Shown here piece after piece: positions 390-57,795 of a stretch of DNA of 64,000 bases; the first letter of the stretch is position 1; each line of letters opens with the position of its first letter. This DNA comes from Bacteroidales bacterium (GTDB lineage: Bacteria > Bacteroidota > Bacteroidia > Bacteroidales > P3). Location: positions 1-64,000 of the forward strand of contig JAGBJI010000001.1 in NCBI GenBank assembly GCA_017934545.1, written 5' to 3'. Under the pieces are notes generated by a model that saw nothing but the letters and a program-made list of their open reading frames with translations, ran no database searches and was not told the origin of the DNA. The translations under genes and the position numbers were made by a program.

Positions 390-1550
390 CTATCCGAACA
401 GTCCATTAGTCAGGTTCACGGCATCCGCTTTCTTCTCCATCACCACGTCAGCATAAATCTCTGTGGTGTGGACGCTGGTATGCCCAAGGAGCTTGCTGGT
501 CGTATAGATGTCCGCCCCGGCTGTCAAGGTCATAGTGGCGAAGGTGTGACGGCTGGTGTGGAAGGTGACCAGTTTGTTAATTCCGGCACGTTTCGCCATA
601 TGCTTCAAAGCCCTGTTGGATGCGCCCAATGACGGAGCGTTGGGGAAAATCAACTGCTCATTTGCGTCCTTCGGTCTTTCTGGCATCCATAACTTTGCCT
701 GTTGACCCAAAGGAACAATGACGGGATGCTTGGTTTTCTGCATGGATGGCACAAATATCACCTCTCCCTCATCTGTCTTGCGGATGTCCTTCCAGCGGAG
801 TGTAGCCATGTCACCATGTCGCAGTCCCGTGAAACAGCAGAACATGAAAGTCTGTTTGGTGGCTGGGCTGCCTGTTGCAGCCTTGGCCATGCTGTTAACC
901 TCCTCTATGGTGAGAAACGTCCTGTCGCTTGGTATTTTTCCAAATTTCTCTTTCACTTCTATCTCATAGAAGGGATTCCGCAGAAGGAGTCCCTTCTTGA
1001 CGGCATAGTTGAGCATCGTATTGAGTGTTGTTTGGAAAACAAGCTTGGTATTGCCAGACAATTCCTTGGGGTTATCTGGCGACTTGGTGTTTTTGTAGGT
1101 GTCCCTGACATAAGCGAGAAGGTTCAGGTAAAAACGTTTGTCCACTTTGGATAGCAATATCCGTGGTCTTCTAATGCTCGTCAGGTATGATTTGACGATG
1201 TTGATGGTGGAACGGTTCATCTTCTGGTATGACTCTGACGCCCGTTTGATGTCCCTGAGATACACTTGGTATTCGTCCAAGAAATCGACAAACGCCTTTG
1301 AAGGAAGTTTCTCTTCTCCCGTTTCCTGCGGATGATCTATTCCCAGAACACGCTCGGATTTTAGTTTGAGGGCATGTTTGAGCGTGTTCTCGTTAACTCG
1401 CCTGTCATTCTCGTCCTTTTCTGGAATGAGATACAGGTTAAGCGATTCGTACCGCCGCTTGCCGCCCTTCTCATAGAACTCCAAATATAGTGACTGGTTG
1501 CCACTGGAAAGTGTTCTGTGCCGTAACTCAATCTTCTGATTTTTCTCCAT
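390..1550 (-). CDS. tyrosine recombinase / integrase, second of a tandem pair
   Basis: A site-specific integrase of about 386 residues when started at the ATG at 1550; an ATG at 1586 would add 12 residues but overlaps the upstream integrase more. An N-terminal arm-binding segment and a SAM-like core-binding segment are followed by the catalytic domain. Visible catalytic residues are Arg in TGLRHGD (about 244), HTSR (His331, Arg334), His357 in LLGHTS and the nucleophile Tyr366 in TEIYAD. All are intact, so the protein should be active. The start lies inside the 3' end of the first integrase, so the two are translated from one message. Such tandem integrases occur at ends of Bacteroidota integrative elements. 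Confidence 0.92.
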   Translation of the reverse strand: MEKNQKIELRHRTLSSGNQSLYLEFYEKGGKRRYESLNLYLIPEKDENDRRVNENTLKHALKLKSERVLGIDHPQETGEEKLPSKAFVDFLDEYQVYLRDIKRASESYQKMNRSTINIVKSYLTSIRRPRILLSKVDKRFYLNLLAYVRDTYKNTKSPDNPKELSGNTKLVFQTTLNTMLNYAVKKGLLLRNPFYEIEVKEKFGKIPSDRTFLTIEEVNSMAKAATGSPATKQTFMFCCFTGLRHGDMATLRWKDIRKTDEGEVIFVPSMQKTKHPVIVPLGQQAKLWMPERPKDANEQLIFPNAPSLGASNRALKHMAKRAGINKLVTFHTSRHTFATMTLTAGADIYTTSKLLGHTSVHTTEIYADVVMEKKADAVNLTNGLFG

Positions 1551-2739
1551 GTGACTCTTTTGATTGTTGGGTAAATAGTTCGTCAACGAGGCTGACGGCC
1601 TCCGTCTTCTTCCTGTCTATGATTTTACTATATATTTGGGTCGTGGTCACGTTGGCATGACCAAGCAGTTTACTTGTCGTGTAGAGGTCTGCGCCAAGAG
1701 TGAGCATCATTGTAGCGAAGGTATGGCGGCTGCAATGGAATGAGATTGTCTTGTCTATATGACCGTTCTTCACCCACTTTTTTATATGGTAGTTGATGGT
1801 GGCATCACTTGTAGGCAGCTTGAAGATGGGTTCATCAGGATTATTCTTCTCAACAAGAACTTTGAGGGCTTCACCTGACAGGGGAACGTTCAAAGGCTTC
1901 TGTGTTTTTTGCATAAAGACATGGACGTAGAGCGTCTTGCCATCAGGCATCTTATGTATCTTGTTCCAAGTAAGTGTACGCACGTCGCTGAGACGCAAGC
2001 CGCAGAAGCAGGAGAAGATGAACGCTTTCTTCACCTGCTCATTGGAACATGGCACATCTATCAAGTTACGCAGTTCCTCGATGGTAAGGAACTCGCGTTC
2101 CTCTGGTGATGGTTGGAATTTCTCTCTTTTGTCGAGCATCTTCATGGGGTTCTGCTGCAAGATACCTTCACGGACAGCCTTGTTCAGCGCACCATTCAAT
2201 ACCGCCTGATGATGGTGGGCGCATCCTTTGCTGATGGTACGGTTTTTCTGTTTCTTGGCTACGCTGTTCTTAGCCGTTTCAAGAAAGCGGAGGAAACCAC
2301 GGCAGAAGTCCTGATCTACTTCGTTCATGCCGATATATGATAGTCCTTCTTGCTCCAAATACAACTCAACTTTCTTGCGCATGTCTTGACGGCCTTTCAG
2401 AGTAGAAGACTGGAAGCCCATACTGTCCTGCTCATATTGGATAAGCCATTCCACGAGCGACATATTTGACCGTTTTATCTTGTCCCACTGCTTAATGCCA
2501 CGGTCTTGCAGGGCGATAATGCGGTCAGATTTTATCTTCTCGGCAATACTCCTTGTCCTGGCATTGACAGCTTTGGCATTGGGCAGACTCTCAGGAATGA
2601 GATACAGCCCAAGTGATTCATACTTGCGAGTACCCTTCACATAGATGTCAAGGTATAGACTGATGTTGCCATCCGCTAGTTTGCGTTCTCTGATGCGGAT
2701 GGGTTCTTTTACCTTCAATGGTTTCTTCGGCCTTGCCAT
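1528..2739 (-). CDS. tyrosine recombinase / integrase, first of a tandem pair
   Basis: A 403-residue paralogue of the next integrase, with the same order: basic N-terminal arm-binding region, SAM-like domain (about 95-200) and catalytic domain. Catalytic residues Arg249 (CGLRLSD), His335/Arg338 (HCSR), His361 (LLGHAN) and Tyr370 (TQIYSK) are all present. It is first in a two-gene unit read leftward, with its 3' end overlapping the second integrase by about 23 bases. No excisionase or transfer gene is visible, so the rest of the element is probably to the left, outside the window. An attachment site might lie in the spacer to the right. Confidence 0.93.
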   Translation of the reverse strand: MARPKKPLKVKEPIRIRERKLADGNISLYLDIYVKGTRKYESLGLYLIPESLPNAKAVNARTRSIAEKIKSDRIIALQDRGIKQWDKIKRSNMSLVEWLIQYEQDSMGFQSSTLKGRQDMRKKVELYLEQEGLSYIGMNEVDQDFCRGFLRFLETAKNSVAKKQKNRTISKGCAHHHQAVLNGALNKAVREGILQQNPMKMLDKREKFQPSPEEREFLTIEELRNLIDVPCSNEQVKKAFIFSCFCGLRLSDVRTLTWNKIHKMPDGKTLYVHVFMQKTQKPLNVPLSGEALKVLVEKNNPDEPIFKLPTSDATINYHIKKWVKNGHIDKTISFHCSRHTFATMMLTLGADLYTTSKLLGHANVTTTQIYSKIIDRKKTEAVSLVDELFTQQSKESHGEKSED

Positions 2740-3058
2740 TTTACTTCCTTGTGTTTACTTTGACGGTTACAAAATACACTTGTTTTCGGGTGCAAAGATA
2801 CAAATAATATTTGAACTACGTAACAAATATGCAACAAAATGTGTCGTAAAATGATAGAAGTTAGCAAAGTTTAATAATTATAGGAAATAACGCTAAAATG
2901 CTTTAATACAATGGCTTTTGATTACTTTTGTTATATATTCTTCGTTTTGTTTTCTGTCATCAAACCCTATACAGTGTAGGGTTCGGGGTGAAAAAACTGC
3001 GTTGTAAAAATGTAAATCCAGAAGACAAAAAATCCTTTTCAGAATAAATTTTATTTTA

Positions 3059-3136
3059 GACCGTCCAAAACCTCATTTCAAACCGTCTGAAATTAAGTTT
3101 TGAACCGTCTAAAACTGTGTTTCGGACGGTTCAAAA
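3059..3136. repeat. 22-bp periodic intergenic array 1 (core ACCGTC, 4 units)
   Basis: The core ACCGTC occurs at 3060-3065, 3082-3087 and 3104-3109, exactly 22 bp apart, and inverted as GACGGT at 3125-3130. A- and T-rich tracts separate the cores. The last two units form a perfect 12-bp inverted repeat, TTTTGAACCGTC (3098-3109) and GACGGTTCAAAA (3125-3136), with a 15-base spacer. It lies between divergent genes and has no T tail, so it is not a simple terminator. It matches the other nine arrays in period but has T-core-A rather than A-core-T polarity. Confidence 0.8.
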
Positions 3137-3279
3137 TAAATCGGTTTAAGAAAAGAATTTTTTCTTTGCATAAAATAAGAAATTCTCTTCTCAATAGAAT
3201 ATTTTTAAGTGTTACATTAATAGATGAGAAATAACGTTTTATATTGTGCATGGGGTATAAAAAAACAGAAAAATCTTTG

Positions 3280-3329: not shown

Positions 3330-4502
3330 ATGAGAAAAATAGCAGTAATAATTATTTTATGTTTGTTTGCGGCGGTTGGGTATGCACAAGAGGTGAAAGA
3401 ATGTTCGTTCGCTTGGGACGGCGTGACAAGGCAATACATTTGTATAATACCCTCCTGTTGCAATGAGTCGCAACCAAGAGGTATGATATTGATACTTCAC
3501 GGGTTAGGTGACGACAAAAACGGTTTTGCTGCGGCATTGAATGCAAAATCATTTGCAGAATCATCTGGTTGGGTGTGTGTTATTCCGCAGGCATTGAGTT
3601 CGGAGATAAAAGTGATGGGATATACTATCCCGTTGGGCAGTTGTTGGAACGCCGCCGTGTCAATAAATATAATGGGAAGTGATTATGTTCTTAACGGCAA
3701 TACAGATGATGAGGGCTTTTTGATGTCATTGCTTGACACAATGACAAAGAATTACAATATATCTACTGACAGCGTGTTTGTTACGGGCTTTTCCATGGGC
3801 GGTTTTATGACCCAACGCTTGTTGGTTGAACACGGAGATAAGTTTGCTGCCGCAGTGTCCGTAAGCGGTATGCTGCCCGCTGCATACAAACAGACAATGC
3901 CTTCGTACAACCGTCATCCTAACGTTATGCACGTGCATTCCCCCGATGATAATACCGTATTGTATAACGGTCAATTTGATTACTCCGATATTAATATGAA
4001 GTTTCAGGTCGGCTTGAGCGTGCCGCAGACGATAGAATATTGGAGAAGTTTTAACCAATGCCGCGATTCATATGTTACGGATACGTTCCCCGATACACGT
4101 GACGACGGATTGTTGTTTGTAAGAAAGAGTTACCATGACGGTATTGACAACTCGCGGGTGGTTTTGATAGATGTTGAAGGCGGCGTGCATACGTGGTACG
4201 GAGATACAAATGCCTATGACATTGATTACATGGAAGAGATATATAATTTTTGTACTGATAAAAAGCAGTCGCTTTGTGTGCATGAGGCAAATACAATGCC
4301 TTTTTCGGTTTATCCGAATCCTGCAAAAGACGGTATAACAGTATATGCTTCGGGCAGCGTGTCAATATTCAATGCAGAAGGGCAATTGATTAAGACTTTA
4401 AAGTGCATTAACGGCGGAACAAGGCTTGATACAAAAGGTTGGAACAGCGGTGTGTATTACCTCAAGTGCGGAAGTAAGGTGCAGAAACTTATTATTAAGT
4501 AG
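3330..4502 (+). CDS. secreted esterase (PHB-depolymerase/feruloyl-esterase-like) with T9SS sorting domain
   Basis: An alpha/beta-hydrolase of 390 residues. A signal peptide ends at GYA with Gln next. The hydrolase part shows an oxyanion-type LHGLGD segment, the nucleophile elbow GFSMGG and a late His in GGVHTWYG, as in the LpqC/PHB-depolymerase esterases. From about residue 315 a type A T9SS C-terminal domain begins with VYPNPAKDG and ends SKVQKLIIK, so the enzyme should be exported across the outer membrane and released or surface-anchored. The start is the ATG at 3330; a GTG three bases earlier is possible. It is a single gene. The substrate cannot be told from sequence. Confidence 0.85.
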   Translation: MRKIAVIIILCLFAAVGYAQEVKECSFAWDGVTRQYICIIPSCCNESQPRGMILILHGLGDDKNGFAAALNAKSFAESSGWVCVIPQALSSEIKVMGYTIPLGSCWNAAVSINIMGSDYVLNGNTDDEGFLMSLLDTMTKNYNISTDSVFVTGFSMGGFMTQRLLVEHGDKFAAAVSVSGMLPAAYKQTMPSYNRHPNVMHVHSPDDNTVLYNGQFDYSDINMKFQVGLSVPQTIEYWRSFNQCRDSYVTDTFPDTRDDGLLFVRKSYHDGIDNSRVVLIDVEGGVHTWYGDTNAYDIDYMEEIYNFCTDKKQSLCVHEANTMPFSVYPNPAKDGITVYASGSVSIFNAEGQLIKTLKCINGGTRLDTKGWNSGVYYLKCGSKVQKLIIK

Positions 4503-8789: not shown

Positions 8790-8878
8790 AGTGTTGATGT
8801 TGTTTTTTTGTTATTTTTATTCTTTTATATGTTTATTGTTTTTTGCCTTTAAAATTCCGCCCTTTGCGGTTTTGCTGC

Positions 8879-9027
8879 CGCCTTTTGCCTTTCGGTCGCC
8901 GCCCCTTCGCACTTTAATTCGGAAAAAATCTGATTTTTTGCCCTAAAAAACCTATTTTTTTCAGTTAAAAAATCTGATTTTTTCGGGATTGTTTCCGCAA
9001 AGGGCGGACGTTAAAAGTAAAAAGGCG
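8879..9027. repeat. 22-bp periodic intergenic array 2 (3 units, GCCC-type arms)
   Basis: Core units TCTGAT (8929-8934), ACCTAT (8950-8955) and TCTGAT (8973-8978), each with an A run before and a T run after, are 21 and 23 bp apart. They are framed by imperfect inverted arms: CGCCTTTTGCC then CCGCCCCTT on the left, and AAGGGCGG then AAAAAGGCG on the right. The element fills the spacer between two leftward genes and ends 5 bp from the stop codon of the OmpA-like gene. Confidence 0.85.
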
Positions 9028-17063: not shown

Positions 17064-17523
17064 GGTTGTTACGCTTCTTTATTATTAATACTACCAAAAT
17101 AAATTTCAAAATTACAACATTTTTTGCAATTGACGTAATATAAAATCATATTACTGCAAAATCCCTTTGTGAAAATGCAAATGCTTTTTGCTGTTTTGTT
17201 TTTGCCCCTTGCGAAAGTAATCTCAAAAAAACCACATTTTTTGACCCAAAAAATGTGGTTTTTTGCATGAAAAAATCTATTTTTTTTGAAATTAAATTCA
17301 GAAGGGGCAAAAATAAAATCACAAAAGGCACGGTTAAAACTGCAAAAAGCAAAAATTATACGTGTCTTTATAATTGCAGGGCAAATGTTTTATGGCGTAA
17401 AAGCCCGAAAAAATTTGTTTTACAGGCAAAAAAGTTAAAAATATTCTTCACCGTAAGATATTTTTTCCTATTTTTGCAAAACTTAACATTGGAAAGCATT
17501 TTCAAAAAGAGAATATAACAACT
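17064..17523. other. divergent spacer between guaA and the WecA-type gene
   Basis: 460 bp without a supported gene. It contains array 3 (17183-17350) and, on the minus strand, a possible guaA -7 box (17107-17114). On the + side, TATTTTTG at 17466-17473 is a candidate -7 box for the following gene. Confidence 0.6.
17183..17350. repeat. 22-bp periodic intergenic array 3 (3 units, GCCC-type arms)
   Basis: Cores CCACAT (17232-17237), ATGTGG (17253-17258) and ATCTAT (17275-17280) are 21 and 22 bp apart, each between A and T runs. Units 1 and 2 are inverted copies and could pair. Inner arms TTTTTGCCCCTTGCGAAAG and GAAGGGGCAAAAA are inverted repeats; outer arms GCTTTTTGC and GCAAAAAGC extend the symmetry. 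The element lies between divergent genes. Confidence 0.87.
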
Positions 17524-21744: not shown

Positions 21745-21917
21745 TTTTTAATAAAAATTTTTATTAATTAGTTAATATTATTTAAATAACGAATATATAA
21801 CTTGAATTTTGTGATTTTATTGTGCGGTGTTGCAAAAAAAATATTAAAATACCGCCCGCAAACCGTAGATAAAAGGTTTTTTAACCGATGCCTTTTCATA
21901 TTTTACTATTGCCCTTT

Positions 21918-22057
21918 GCCTTTTTGTTTTCGCCCCTTCTGAAGATAAAAGCAAAAAAATCACATTTTTTGAGTCAAAAAAATAGGTTTTTTTAATAAAA
22001 AAATGTGATTTTTTTGAGATTGTTTCCGCAAAGGGCAAAAACCAAAACGCAAAAGGC
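21918..22057. repeat. 22-bp periodic intergenic array 4 (3 units, GCCC-type arms)
   Basis: Cores TCACAT (21960-21965), ATAGGT (21982-21987) and ATGTGA (22003-22008) are centred 22 and 21 bp apart, with runs of 7 A before and 6-7 T after. Arms GCCTTTTTG plus CGCCCCTTCTGAAG on the left face CCGCAAAGGGC plus GCAAAAGGC on the right. It occupies the tandem spacer between aspA and the macrodomain gene (21745-22106), where nothing else is seen. Confidence 0.88.
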
Positions 22058-22106
22058 AGATATGATTTGCGTTCGGGCTTTTGTAAATATTGCGTTTGCA
22101 GTTGTG

Positions 22107-27008: not shown

Positions 27009-27422
27009 ATTACGTGTTGTTTTTATTATTTCAAAAAAAATAAAATACCAGTACCATAACGCAAAATTTTGAAATAAATTATATCAAAACCCGTACCACT
27101 GTCAAAAATTTTCATTTTTATGTGTTTTATTCACGCTTGTGAACCGCTGTAAATTGAATTTATAGTTGCCTTTTGTGAAAATAAAAATGCCCTTTCGCAT
27201 TTGATTTTTGCCCCTTCTGAAAGCAATGTGAAAAAAAATAGGTTTTTTGCCTCAAAAAAATAGGTTTTTTTACTCAAAAAATCACATTTTTTTTGAGATT
27301 ACTTTCGCAAGGGGCAAAATTAAAATGTAAAAGGGCGGCATTTTTAACGCAAAGGGGGTTAAACATTTGCACAATGATTTTGTCTAAATTACAGTTGATT
27401 TTCTTTTGAAAACGTATTTGTG
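27009..27422. other. divergent spacer between protease and TolC-type genes
   Basis: 414 bp without a supported gene. Array 5 (27183-27345) fills its middle. The rest is AT-rich and should hold the two promoters, but no clear -33/-7 pair was found. Confidence 0.6.
27183..27345. repeat. 22-bp periodic intergenic array 5 (prototype, long arms)
   Basis: Cores ATAGGT (27238-27243), ATAGGT (27260-27265) and TCACAT (27282-27287) are exactly 22 bp apart, between runs of 6-8 A and 6-8 T. Arms of about 45 bp are inverted: left AAAAATGCCCTTT then TTTTTGCCCCTTCTGAAAG; right CTTTCGCAAGGGGCAAAA then AAAGGGCGGCATTTTT. The whole could form one long hairpin or cruciform of about 160 bases. It lies between two divergent genes. 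Confidence 0.9.
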
Positions 27423-32588: not shown

Positions 32589-33071
32589 TTATCTTGCGGC
32601 GGACATCTGATGGTTTTGTTGCTGCAAAGAAATCAAAACACTGATTTGAGATTTCAATTCGTCCATTGACTTAAGCATTTTTTCAGCCCAGTCCGCAGTC
32701 AAAACTACGCTTTCTTTCTTTTGCAGTTTTTTCTCCGTATCGTAATCGTCCTGCAGTTTTAACCAATAATCTTCGGGATAATCCAAATTTGTTTCCAGTC
32801 TTTGTGCTACCAAAGGCGTTATTCTGCGTTTGCTTTGCAGTAATTCAGTGAGATTTGACTGCGACATATTCATCATTACTGCAAAATCTTTGAGTTTTAT
32901 TTTCTTTTGTTTTATGCTTTCACGGATATAATCTCCGGGGCAAGTGTATTTTGCATTTGTTTTTGCAAGGTCTTTTGCTAATTTTGCCTCGTATTTATCT
33001 CTGTTCGGAGTTCCCTTTTTGCCGAGATATTTATCTTTCATTTCTTCAAATGTATAAACTGTCATTGCCAT
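32589..33071 (-). CDS. HigA-type XRE antitoxin
   Basis: 160 residues. A helix-turn-helix XRE domain (about 45-100: YIRESIKQKKIKLKDFAVMM, then NLTELLQSKRRITPLVAQRL) is of the HigA/VapI kind. Residues 1-45 are basic and residues 105-150 form a likely coiled coil. As antitoxin it should bind the toxin and repress the shared promoter. It lies 19 bp downstream of the toxin gene. The toxin-first order is typical of higBA. Confidence 0.85.
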   Translation of the reverse strand: MAMTVYTFEEMKDKYLGKKGTPNRDKYEAKLAKDLAKTNAKYTCPGDYIRESIKQKKIKLKDFAVMMNMSQSNLTELLQSKRRITPLVAQRLETNLDYPEDYWLKLQDDYDTEKKLQKKESVVLTADWAEKMLKSMDELKSQISVLISLQQQNHQMSAAR

Positions 33072-33090
33072 TGTTACAACTCCTTTCTCT

Positions 33091-33429
33091 TTATTCTTGT
33101 CCGTAATATTTCTTTCTTATTTGTTGTGCTTTTTTTATTTCTTTGGAAGGCGTCTTTTGTGTTTTCTTAACGAATCCGTGTGTTGCTACGACGAATGCAC
33201 GCTTGTTTTTGTCCCAAAAAGCCAACAAACGGTATTCAATGTTTTTTAAATCAGTGCGGAATTCCCAGATACCGTCGGTGTTTTCTAATTTTTTGAACAC
33301 TCTGCTATCTCTTCCTTTCCGTGACTTGTCTATATCGTAAAATATTTTATCTCTTGTTTTTTCATTAAGGGTGTCAAGGAAGTCGCATGCTTGCGGTAAA
33401 AACAGTATTTCAAAGTTATTTCCGTTCAT
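33091..33429 (-). CDS. HigB/RelE-superfamily toxin
   Basis: 112 residues. Pattern of the Gp49/HigB-like family (PF05973): LPQACDFLDTLNEKTRDKI helix pair, then WEFRTDLKNIEYRLLAFWDK strand core with conserved Arg residues, and a late GFVKKTQKTPSKEI with Lys and Thr. Members are mRNA interferases acting at the ribosome. It heads a two-gene leftward unit with the XRE antitoxin. Array 6 lies in the divergent spacer upstream. Confidence 0.88.
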   Translation of the reverse strand: MNGNNFEILFLPQACDFLDTLNEKTRDKIFYDIDKSRKGRDSRVFKKLENTDGIWEFRTDLKNIEYRLLAFWDKNKRAFVVATHGFVKKTQKTPSKEIKKAQQIRKKYYGQE

Positions 33430-33580
33430 TGTGTAATGATTACCATTGTTTTAATATTGCAAATTTACAACAATAAATTTAATTGAGTAAATTTTTATCA
33501 GAAATTTTTTGATAAGGTTGTTTTGTTTTTCGGGTGTTTTCGGACGTATGAACGGGAAGATTGCGGGAAATAAAAATTTC

Positions 33581-33701
33581 TTTTCTGACTACAAAGAAAA
33601 AAAAACATATGTTTTTCGTTTCAAAAACATATGTTTTTTGATTAAAATTCATATGTTTTTTTACAAAAATACATATGTTTTTTATTTTTAGATTCAGAAA
33701 A
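33581..33701. repeat. 22-bp periodic intergenic array 6 (CATATG x4, TTTTCTGA arms)
   Basis: CATATG occurs at 33606, 33628, 33650 and 33672, exactly 22 bp apart four times, each set between A and T runs. The arms TTTTCTGA (33581-33588) and TCAGAAAA (33694-33701) are perfect inverted repeats, shared with array 8. It lies between divergent genes. Confidence 0.92.
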
Positions 33702-36498: not shown

Positions 36499-36945
36499 CA
36501 TAAATCATCAGAAATTAAATCACAGGAGTGCAAATCAGTGCTTGCGGCAAGTGTTTTTGTTCTGTACGGAGTGTCATAAGATTTCTGCCTATATACAGAA
36601 GAAAAACGCCTATGGGCTGAAAAATTCCGCCACAAGCCTGTTTGCAGATGAAAAGAGGGGGTATTTTTACTGAAAATACCCCCTCTTTTTGACAAAAATA
36701 CCCGGTATTTTTACTGAAAAAACCGGGTATTTTTATCGGTAAAAGGGCTTTTGGCAAAAATTAAACATTGTTCGGCGGCAAAAAACGTGGTTTAGGCGGA
36801 ATTTTTATATAATTTTGCTTTTTGTATACCGGCACAGTGTTATTTTTGTGGGTACATATTATTATTGTGTATATACATTTATTAACGGTATAAAAAGTAT
36901 TTACTGATTGTTGAAAGAGAAAATATTGATTATACATATATATTT
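36499..36945. other. spacer between the adhesin-like and sirtuin genes
   Basis: 447 bp. Array 7 (36651-36734) lies in the middle. TATTTTTG at 36841-36848 is a possible -7 box for the sirtuin gene. No gene is supported. Confidence 0.55.
36651..36734. repeat. 22-bp periodic intergenic array 7 (GGGGGTA/TACCCCC-type cores, 4 units)
   Basis: Four units with cores GAGGGGGTA (36655), TACCCCCTC (36677), TACCCGGTA (36699) and AACCGGGTA (36721) start exactly 22 bp apart, each between A and T runs. Units 1 and 2 make a very stable hairpin ending in CTCTTTTTG, so this copy could also terminate the upstream T9SS gene. Confidence 0.9.
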
Positions 36946-44059: not shown

Positions 44060-44067
44060 CAAAGATA
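44060..44067 (-). promoter_or_regulatory. -7 box TATCTTTG for clpP
   Basis: A perfect -7 box on the minus strand about 66 bases before the clpP ATG. No TTG is seen at the usual -33 distance. Confidence 0.5.
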
Positions 44068-44164: not shown

Positions 44165-44333
44165 TGTTTTCTGATTTTACACTAAAATAAATCACATTTT
44201 TATTATACATAAGTCACATTTTTACATGATAAAAGTCACATTTTTTATATACAAAAGTGTGATTTTTGTGTAATAAAAGTGTGACTTTTTTGTAATAAAA
44301 AACACATATTTTGAGTGGTGTTTTCAGAAAACA
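44165..44333. repeat. 22-bp periodic intergenic array 8 (TCACAT/GTGTGA, six units, TGTTTTCTGA arms)
   Basis: TCACAT at 44192, 44214 and 44236, then inverted GTGTGA at 44257 and 44279, then ACACAT at 44302: steps of 22, 22, 21, 22 and 23 bp. The arms TGTTTTCTGA (44165-44174) and TCAGAAAACA (44324-44333) are perfect inverted repeats. The three forward and two inverted units give the array an overall dyad. It lies between divergent genes. Confidence 0.92.
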
Positions 44334-44354: not shown

Positions 44355-44383
44355 TTGCATTGCACTGAATTTTTGTATCTTTG
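44355..44383 (+). promoter_or_regulatory. promoter of the porin gene
   Basis: TTG (44355-44357), 18 bases, then TATCTTTG (44376-44383), about 50 bases before the ATG at 44435. Confidence 0.55.
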
Positions 44384-52580: not shown

Positions 52581-52695
52581 TTTCTGCCCTTTGTGAAAGT
52601 AGGAGCGAAAAAATCAGATTTTTTGCCTCAAAAAAATAGGTTTTTTCACTCAAAAAACCACATTTTTTTCAAGTTACTTTCGCAAAGGGCAGAAA
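52581..52695. repeat. 22-bp periodic intergenic array 9 (3 units, GCCC-type arms)
   Basis: Cores TCAGAT (52614-52619), ATAGGT (52636-52641) and CCACAT (52658-52663) are exactly 22 bp apart. Arms TTTCTGCCCTTTGTGAAAG (from 52581) and CTTTCGCAAAGGGCAGAAA (to 52695) match at nearly every base as inverted repeats. It lies between two convergent genes and between their two separate terminators, so it is not needed for termination. Confidence 0.92.
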
Positions 52696-57573: not shown

Positions 57574-57679
57574 AACAGTTTGCAAATATACGAATTTTCT
57601 TTCACTTTGTGATTAAACTTTGCATAACGCAGGGTTTCACCGTGCTTTTTTTCATTTTGCCGGTGCTTAATCTGATATT

Positions 57680-57795
57680 GTTTTTGCCTTTTCAGAAAAG
57701 AGTTAGGAAAAAACCCCCTTTTTTCACCGAAAAAACCCGGTTTTTTCAGTCAAAAAACCGGGTTTTTTGTCAGCAAAGCGTCGTTTGGCAAAAAC
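57680..57795. repeat. 22-bp periodic intergenic array 10 (CCCCC/CCCGG cores, 3 units)
   Basis: Cores ACCCCC (57713-57718), ACCCGG (57735-57740) and ACCGGG (57757-57762) are exactly 22 bp apart, between runs of A and T. Arms GTTTTTGCCTTTTC and GTTTGGCAAAAAC are partly inverted. It lies between two leftward genes (57586-57831). Cores resemble array 7, arms resemble the GCCC type. Confidence 0.85.

What the first reader, a model, noticed from the sequence alone, without database searches (positions are those of the whole stretch)
27183..27345. A family of ten intergenic arrays with a 22-bp period
Seen directly: ten spacers contain 3-6 units of A-run, short core, T-run whose centres are 22 bp apart (single steps 21-23): 3059-3136, 8879-9027, 17183-17350, 21918-22057, 27183-27345, 33581-33701, 36651-36734, 44165-44333, 52581-52695, 57680-57795. 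Cores differ between arrays, but spacing is kept, so selection seems to act on spacing rather than one word. They lie in divergent (five), tandem (four) and convergent (one) spacers, so neither promoter nor terminator function fits all. A 22-bp step is about two helix turns, which puts all A-tracts on one face and would bend the DNA. Inference: an array for an oligomeric DNA-binding or nucleoid protein, or a non-autonomous mobile repeat.
Basis: partly seen in the sequence, partly recalled or inferred. Interest (0 to 1): 0.9.

Follow-up and report, generated by a model that had tools for sequence, protein, structure and literature searches.

The report
Promoter-aligned 22-bp intergenic DNA arrays
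Many gaps between genes in this gut-type bacterium hold DNA built from 22-letter blocks that is predicted to be strongly bent; the letters change freely, but the position on the turn of the helix tends to match the start signal of the neighbouring gene, which suggests a gene-control element defined by shape rather than by sequence.

Summary
In detail: nine of the ten arrays fit one rule (A-run/core/T-run, 22-bp step); the tenth (3059-3136) is another class with the same step. They belong to a family of about one per 5.6 kb (108 in 610 kb sampled, 2 in called genes) with eight sequence classes. Relatives carry the same frame with other words. Mobility is not supported: between two relatives at 95% identity, 29 of 29 and 33 of 34 aligned arrays are shared. 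Arms change slightly more slowly than other intergenic DNA (4.6% against 6.2%). No hairpin is conserved. Predicted curvature is extreme. New: the distance from array centre to promoter -7 box (TAnnTTTG) follows the helix (10.6 bp) in this genome (n=62), in a held-out contig (n=29, p about 5e-5, phase as predicted) and in a second species (n=73, p about 2e-9), but not to stop codons. Two other relatives (n=14, 7) do not show it, a third only weakly, and the headline array has no detectable -7 box. Best reading: promoter-upstream DNA-shape elements in rotational register with RNA polymerase. No expression data exist.

The parts
3059..3136 (.). Class VI array: GACCGTY words between A/T runs, 22-bp step
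   Evidence: letters; class VI scan hit 3059-3155; generic-scan centre 3084, score 30/36
8923..8983 (.). Class I array, three A6-N5-T6 units; outer inverted-repeat arms at 8841-8869 and 8995-9023
   Evidence: generic score 36/36
17225..17287 (.). Class I array, three units; inverted-repeat arms span 17182-17330
   Evidence: -7 boxes on both sides; the orthologous spacer in three relatives also holds an array, of class I or VI
21953..22015 (.). Class I array, three units; inverted-repeat arms span 21910-22058
   Evidence: G001 has an array with other words upstream of the same gene, G004 one of another class (L113 position 4795)
27231..27294 (.). Class I array of the finding, three units; inverted-repeat arms span 27169-27356
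   Evidence: no TAnnTTTG box found on either side
33600..33683 (.). Class III array, four CATATG units
   Evidence: letters
36651..36734 (.). Class IV array, four units (CCCCC/CCGGG words)
44165..44333 (.). Class V array, GTCACA/TGTGAC words; four units at 44231-44312 fit the rule
52608..52669 (.). Class I array in the only convergent spacer; inverted-repeat arms span 52581-52695
57708..57768 (.). Class IV array, three units
3435..3442 (+). putative -7 box TACATTTG, 350.5 bp from array centre 3084
2793..2800 (-). putative -7 box TATCTTTG, 283.5 bp from array centre 3084
17469..17476 (+). putative -7 box TATTTTTG, 212.5 bp from array centre 17256
17107..17114 (-). putative -7 box TAATTTTG, 141.5 bp from array centre 17256
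33460..33467 (-). putative -7 box TAAATTTG, 163 bp from array centre 33630.5
36841..36848 (+). putative -7 box TATTTTTG, 159.5 bp from array centre 36681
44376..44383 (+). putative -7 box TATCTTTG, 115.5 bp from array centre 44260
44060..44067 (-). putative -7 box TATCTTTG, 192.5 bp from array centre 44260
57583..57590 (-). putative -7 box TATATTTG, 147.5 bp from array centre 57738

Best explanation
The arrays are cis-acting DNA-shape elements of promoters. A short half-site alternates with its complement about every 11 bp, so that all half-sites face one side of the helix and, where they are A/T tracts, should curve the DNA strongly (architecture shown; curvature predicted only). The element lies between operons, usually upstream of a promoter, and tends to be in rotational register with the -7 box (shown statistically). 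Inferred: the curved face, bare or bound by an HU/IHF-type or other architectural protein, guides upstream DNA towards RNA polymerase or pins a supercoil loop there, and so sets promoter output. Because mainly the geometry matters, the words drift and whole classes are replaced while position and frame stay.
For: Helical phasing of array centre to -7 box at 10.6 bp: discovery set n=62 nR2 10.4; held-out contig n=29 nR2 9.9, phase 47 degrees where 50 was expected; species G001 n=73 nR2 20.2. In 20,000 permutations of -7 positions among genes none reached the observed value (own with C4 n=91, G001 n=73). Stop codons pooled over own, G001 and G009 are not phased (n=143, nR2 0.2). The signal survives stricter array thresholds, a shorter 5'UTR limit, d>120 bp and one value per array, and is seen in classes A6-type, III and VI/VIII of own and both groups of G001, and in divergent and tandem spacers. 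A -7 box lies between array and start in 52 of 70 five-prime sides. Arms evolve more slowly than other intergenic DNA (P 0.034 and 0.021). 51 of 60 arrays lie below the genome's 1% quantile for end-to-end distance. Precedent: IS5 activates glpFK through a phase-dependent upstream A-tract bend (PMC2753651, passages read).
Against: G002 (n=14, nR2 0.9) and G006 (n=7, nR2 0.3) show no phasing; the first G009 set (n=12) has nR2 1.1, and new G009 loci (n=19) are phased (p about 0.024) but 58 degrees from the predicted phase, V-test p 0.073. Own and G001 phases differ by 67 degrees, about 2 bp. With a strict -33/-7 promoter rule the signal is weaker (own n=20, p about 0.035; G001 n=27, p about 0.009). 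Opposite-strand copies of the motif show some phasing (n=37, nR2 5.4 at 10.5 bp), as do own start codons (n=79, nR2 3.9). Other A/T tracts in the same zone are phased too, with lower R (0.16 and 0.28 against 0.46 and 0.53), so the register belongs to the promoter region, not to the -7 box alone. At least two rarer letter-permuted motifs reach similar R (from n and nR2). Beyond 260 bp own shows little (n=10, nR2 1.3). Arrays also occur in convergent spacers (7 of 58). Four of ten window arrays, the headline one included, have no detected -7 box. No expression data.
Confidence: 0.6

Rival explanations
1. A chromosome-packaging code: arrays pin supercoil loops or bind a nucleoid protein, and promoters are merely fitted into the same rotational frame without being controlled by it.
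For: Strong predicted curvature; arrays in 7 of 14 convergent spacers of 200 bp or more; the register extends to A/T tracts around promoters; the Synechocystis authors raise this reading for their own promoter phasing (PMC9825172, passages read).
Against: Array spacing along C1 is random (CV 1.01); no phasing to stop codons; divergent spacers are occupied more than convergent ones (22 of 45 against 8 of 45, P 0.003).
Confidence: 0.2
2. Multi-site operators for a family of paralogous sequence-specific regulators, one per class of words.
For: Limited core vocabulary in class I; palindromic units on one helix face; class-specific words.
Against: Core and linker positions change at the background rate; classes replace each other at orthologous spacers; no candidate regulator family was searched for or identified.
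Confidence: 0.1
3. Non-autonomous mobile repeats (MITE or REP-like) tolerated between operons.
For: Two class III copies 53 kb apart share 84 of 84 inner bases and reversed copies up to 82 of 84; element-like inverted flanks.
Against: 29 of 29 and 33 of 34 aligned arrays shared at 95% identity; class III identity stops inside the element, leaving different flank words in the same frame; no Y1 transposase; insertion alone does not predict helical register with promoters.
Confidence: 0.08
4. RNA-level elements: long hairpins, terminators or dsRNA.
For: Elements are quasi-palindromic.
Against: No complementarity within arrays beyond the shared frame: core 1 with core 3 P 0.28, linkers P 0.57, flanks P 0.93 and 0.91; a promoter box usually lies between array and gene; no Rfam match in the window apart from a tRNA.
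Confidence: 0.02

Closest known systems
Helically phased A-tracts aligned with the transcription start in Synechocystis (PMC9825172, passages read, part of the abstract among them)
   Same: A-tracts at helical spacing are in phase with the promoter and start site genome-wide.
   Different: There a statistical enrichment along promoters; here discrete elements of about 60-190 bp, repeated, palindromic, in several sequence classes with a 22-bp frame, with phase seen out to about 260 bp from the -7 box.
IS5 3' bend (IB) upstream of glpFK in E. coli (PMC2753651, passages read, part of the abstract among them)
   Same: Upstream permanent bend of A-tracts that acts only at the correct phase angle to the promoter (10-bp insertion tolerated, 5-bp not).
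   Different: There one mobile element with an IHF site and measured activation; here many position-stable arrays with changing words and no measurement.
BrickBuilt minisatellite-MITE of Porphyromonas gingivalis (PMC4596501: abstract, sections 5 and 8, and part 1 of 2 of section 7 read)
   Same: Intergenic tandem repeats of 23 nt with flanking inverted ends in another Bacteroidales; bidirectional promoter activity reported.
   Different: BrickBuilt: 19 copies, up to 22.8 direct repeats, IS5-like ends. Here: many more copies, mostly 3-4 alternating-palindrome units, several classes.
H. pylori sabA T-tract rheostat (PMC4081817, abstract read)
   Same: Tract geometry upstream of the core promoter changes its axial alignment with UP-like elements.
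   Different: A slipping homopolymer tract, not a modular array.
REP/BIME repeats (recalled; PMC3733652 seen in a search listing only)
   Same: High-copy intergenic palindromes in tandem.
   Different: No Y1 (RAYT-type) transposase in 14 genus genomes; no conserved hairpin; rotational register with promoters.

Membership tests
Promoter-upstream phased curved DNA | A/T tracts at helical spacing with predicted curvature that depends on phasing | tested here: met
   end-to-end ratio 0.64-0.69 against genome 0.93 and 0.88-0.90 when tract order is shuffled (wedge values recalled; classes I-IV only)
Promoter-upstream phased curved DNA | Rotational alignment with the promoter | tested here: met
   own, held-out contig and G001; not seen in G002 (n=14) and G006 (n=7); weak in G009
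Promoter-upstream phased curved DNA | Changes promoter output in a phase-dependent way | not testable with these tools
   needs a reporter assay
BrickBuilt MITE | 23-nt tandem direct repeats | tested here: not met
   alternating palindromes at 21-23 bp, 3-4 units in 59 of 60 arrays, variable words
BrickBuilt MITE | IS5-like terminal repeats | tested here: inconclusive
   GAGACCTTTGCA: 2 matches with 2 mismatches in the window, 4.65 expected, none at an array. The variant GAGCCCTTTGCA with up to 3 mismatches: 42 matches, 47 expected, but a few lie in class I flanks, which share GCCCTTTGC
MITE in general | presence/absence polymorphism and target duplications | tested here: not met
   29 of 29 and 33 of 34 arrays shared; target duplications not tested formally
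REP/BIME | associated RAYT (Y1_Tnp) transposase | tested here: not met
   0 of 14 genus genomes; REPs can exist without a RAYT (recalled)
REP/BIME | conserved hairpin-forming palindrome | tested here: not met
   no complementarity beyond the frame for class I cores, linkers and flanks and class III flanks; other classes not tested
Intrinsic terminator | lies at 3' ends of transcription units | tested here: not met
   19 of 58 arrays in divergent spacers; a -7 box lies between array and start in 52 of 70 sides

The most novel reading that the evidence does not exclude
A class of bacterial cis element defined by geometry alone: a 22-bp frame of alternating half-sites, rotationally locked to promoters over more than 200 bp, whose letters turn over so freely that orthologous promoters in sister species carry unrelated words in the same frame. 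Such elements would be invisible to motif-based annotation and could be widespread in Bacteroidales, since the 17+5 frame also appears, in few copies, in a sister genus and in another family.
Probability: 0.4. Interest if true: 0.95.

Novelty: new variant of a known kind. Interest (0 to 1): 0.85.

Why it matters
Whether helically phased A-tracts upstream of bacterial promoters do anything, and whether they serve transcription or packaging, is an old open question (raised again in PMC9825172, passages read). Here the tracts come as discrete, repeated, position-stable elements with measurable phase, mildly constrained geometry and free sequence, at many natural promoters of one genome. That makes the question directly testable by insertion of half or whole helix turns, and warns that geometry-only elements escape motif search.

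Tried and rejected
Long hairpin or RNA: not supported by within-array complementarity tests. REP/RAYT: no Y1 transposase. MITE: no gain or loss at 95% identity apart from one weakened copy of 34; BrickBuilt ends inconclusive. Regular chromosome ruler: spacing on C1 is random. Regional clustering of classes looked suggestive by eye but was not significant (P 0.26). Word swaps by copying between arrays: weak (both 14-mers found elsewhere at 9% of 194 variable array sites). Quantised distance between divergent promoters: not significant (n=25, nR2 0.8; n=18, nR2 2.4). HU/IHF family: present in 14 of 14 genus genomes, so not discriminating. Synteny with 927 kb of G001: 58 own gene pairs were syntenic and 2 of these held an own array, so a wide orthologous comparison with G001 was not possible. 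Broad search in 295 Bacteroidales: 7 genomes, own included, hold a relaxed three-unit A-tract pattern, some of them plain AT-rich sequence.

Literature. A report of such arrays was sought and of phased upstream A-tracts; apart from BrickBuilt none of the listings seen describes such arrays. The library lacks most subscription papers.

Full report
What is there. The window comes from a metagenome-assembled Bacteroidales genome. Of eight named records whose aspartate ammonia-lyase is 94-99% identical, three name deer rumen; a record at 75% is titled Paludibacteraceae, so the family is an inference. All ten arrays are real. Nine follow one rule and none appear in 200 Markov simulations; the tenth, 3059-3136, has the same 22-bp step with different letters.

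Family. In 413 kb (contig C1 1-300000, C2, window) 60 arrays were found by an A-run/T-run rule; 58 could be placed and all are intergenic although 82-88% is coding. By core word they fall into classes I (27), II (6), III (22), IV (4) and V (1), with further classes VI (GACCGTY), VII (TTTTCTGAAAA) and VIII (TGCAAAACCGTCTTGCA) in spacers that the rule had missed; 1 of 11 of these lay in a called gene. A scan that knows only the frame (6-bp arm, core, complementary arm, linker, three times) finds 76 in this sample and 108 in 610 kb, 2 of them in called genes, against 0-2 per simulation of the pooled intergenic DNA. At threshold 32/36 hits come almost only at steps of 21-23 bp; at 30/36 steps of 18-20 and 24-26 bp give 35 and 42 hits against 76.

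Other species. Of 14 genus genomes 5 have strict A6N5T6 pairs at 22 bp, with counts 304 (own), 63, 15, 6 and 1; G001, G009 and G002 use other cores than own. The frame scan finds further words in the same frame in other relatives (samples are small). Spacers that could be compared: upstream of aspA own and G001 have class I arrays with different words and G004 one of another class, while no array was noticed in the 420 bp shown for the other relatives; the spacer 17064-17523 holds class I in own and G001 and class VI in G009 and G004; upstream of tolC own and G001 have class I, G009 only flank-like modules and G004 another array of roughly 22-bp step; in two C1 spacers G001 has GGCG words where own has class I (read by eye). 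These few cases were chosen by synteny, not at random.

Not mobile, frame mildly constrained. G006 and G002 align at 95% over about 199 kb and 229 kb after one more fetch. 29 of 29 aligned G006 arrays keep the frame in G002 (2 not aligned, 9 in ORFs set aside) and 33 of 34 G002 arrays in G006 (20 not aligned, 12 in ORFs set aside). About 11% of 175 random noncoding windows reach that retention score by chance. Arms differ at 4.6% of sites, other intergenic DNA at 6.2-6.3% (P 0.034 and 0.021); cores and linkers do not differ from background (P 0.28 and 0.81). The two directions are not independent and the effect is modest. Seven indels fell within 45 bp of 30 array centres: 1, 1, 1, 13, 21, 22 and 26 bp.

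Not a hairpin. Core 1 with core 3 (n=23, P 0.28), linker 1 with linker 2 (n=20, P 0.57) and left with right flank (class I n=27, P 0.93; class III n=22, P 0.91) are no more complementary than re-paired ones.

Curvature. With recalled Bolshoy wedge values, 130-bp stretches centred on arrays have an end-to-end ratio of 0.64-0.69 against 0.93 for the genome and 0.88-0.90 when tracts are kept but their order is shuffled; 51 of 60 fall below the genome's 1% quantile. This is a prediction.

Position. Median distance is 159 bp to a facing start codon and 89 bp to a stop codon; a TAnnTTTG box, the Bacteroidetes -7 consensus (at -12 to -5 in a Flavobacterium, PMC9723704, passages read), lies between array and start in 52 of 70 cases, with 61 boxes on the correct strand against 22 on the other. 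With all classes, spacers of 200 bp or more hold an array in 22 of 29 divergent, 34 of 49 tandem and 7 of 14 convergent cases.

Helical register. With frame-defined centres the distance to the -7 box peaks at 10.60 bp in own (n=62) and G001 (n=74); permuting -7 positions among genes gives P 0.0003 and less than 1 in 3000. In one search (d>60 bp) nR2 at 10.6 bp is 10.4 (own, n=62), 20.2 (G001, n=73), 1.1 (G009, n=12) and 0.9 (G002, n=14); G006 has 7 values (nR2 0.3). Stop codons pooled over own, G001 and G009 give 0.2 (n=143; own alone 2.4, n=51); start codons give 3.9 in own (n=79) and 0.3 in G001 (n=95). With a strict -33/-7 rule the signal is weaker (own n=20, p about 0.035; G001 n=27, p about 0.009). 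Contig C4, fetched afterwards, gave n=29, nR2 9.87, phase 47 degrees against 50 expected, V-test u 4.44; its stop codons gave 1.9 (n=21). Classes agree roughly: own A6-type 53, III 92, VI/VIII 4 degrees; G001 A6-type -5, others -33. The result holds for stricter arrays, shorter UTRs, d>120 bp and one value per array; by distance it is seen to about 260 bp, and beyond that own shows little (n=10, nR2 1.3). New G009 loci: 14 arrays, n=19, p about 0.024, phase -53 degrees.

Controls that cut the other way. Opposite-strand motifs show some phasing (n=37, nR2 5.4 at 10.5 bp). TAnnTTTG ranks first of 30 letter permutations by summed nR2 (39.9, next 11.6), but at least two rare ones have similar R. 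Other A/T tracts in the promoter zone are phased with lower R (0.16 and 0.28), and tracts in 5'UTRs with R 0.12 and 0.26, the latter still nR2 8.9. In array-free upstream regions A/T5 tracts are at most weakly phased (11 and 61 promoters, nR2 2.0 and 2.9), against 29.3 and 22.4 in array-bearing ones. The register is thus a property of the upstream region, in which the -7 box is the most coherent feature measured.

Mechanism. Inferred: the array presents curved DNA, or a protein on it, on a fixed face of the helix relative to the polymerase. If the -7 box starts at -12, hand arithmetic from the phases puts A/T tract centres near -41, -51 and -62 in own and about 2 bp nearer in G001; recalled E. 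coli UP subsites lie near -42 and -52. The nearest tested precedent is the IS5 bend upstream of glpFK, which works only at the right phase (PMC2753651, passages). Synechocystis shows genome-wide alignment of phased A-tracts with starts, and its authors note that this may reflect packaging (PMC9825172, passages). HU/IHF-family proteins are present in all 14 genus genomes, so a generic partner is available.

Limits. Gene calls are home-made, no transcription starts are mapped, Rayleigh p values are taken as exp(-nR2), and the genome is listed at 8.1% contamination. The headline array has no TAnnTTTG box on either side, so the promoter link is shown for the family, not for that copy.

Noticed in passing
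window 390-2739: Two adjacent tyrosine recombinases with arm-binding and SAM-like domains beside the class VI array at 3059; possibly an integrated element.
   Followed up: partly
window 32589-33429: HTH_3 protein next to a Gp49-like protein, an apparent HigBA-type toxin-antitoxin pair (system name recalled), directly beside the class III array.
   Followed up: no
own contig C1 190926/193650 and 202514/205902: Two pairs of neighbouring class I arrays share nearly identical patches of roughly 80-105 bases whose edges lie inside the element, as if copied into an existing frame.
   Followed up: partly
own class III copies, e.g. C1 78454, 131436, 261991: The inner 84 bp are nearly identical between distant copies while flank words differ but keep the frame; an exchange mechanism is unexplained.
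   Followed up: partly
G027 and G304: A sister genus and another Bacteroidales family carry a few matches (2 and 4) of the same 17+5 frame, with linkers (ACCCT, ACATA, GCATG) resembling those of this genome.
   Followed up: no
genomes G002 and G006: 23 and 13 HU/IHF-family matches against 2-9 in the other 12 genus genomes; these are also the two species in which no promoter phasing was seen.
   Followed up: no
class VI arrays, e.g. window 3059-3136: The word ACCGTCTGAA is one letter from the recalled Neisseria DNA uptake core GCCGTCTGAA; probably coincidence.
   Followed up: no
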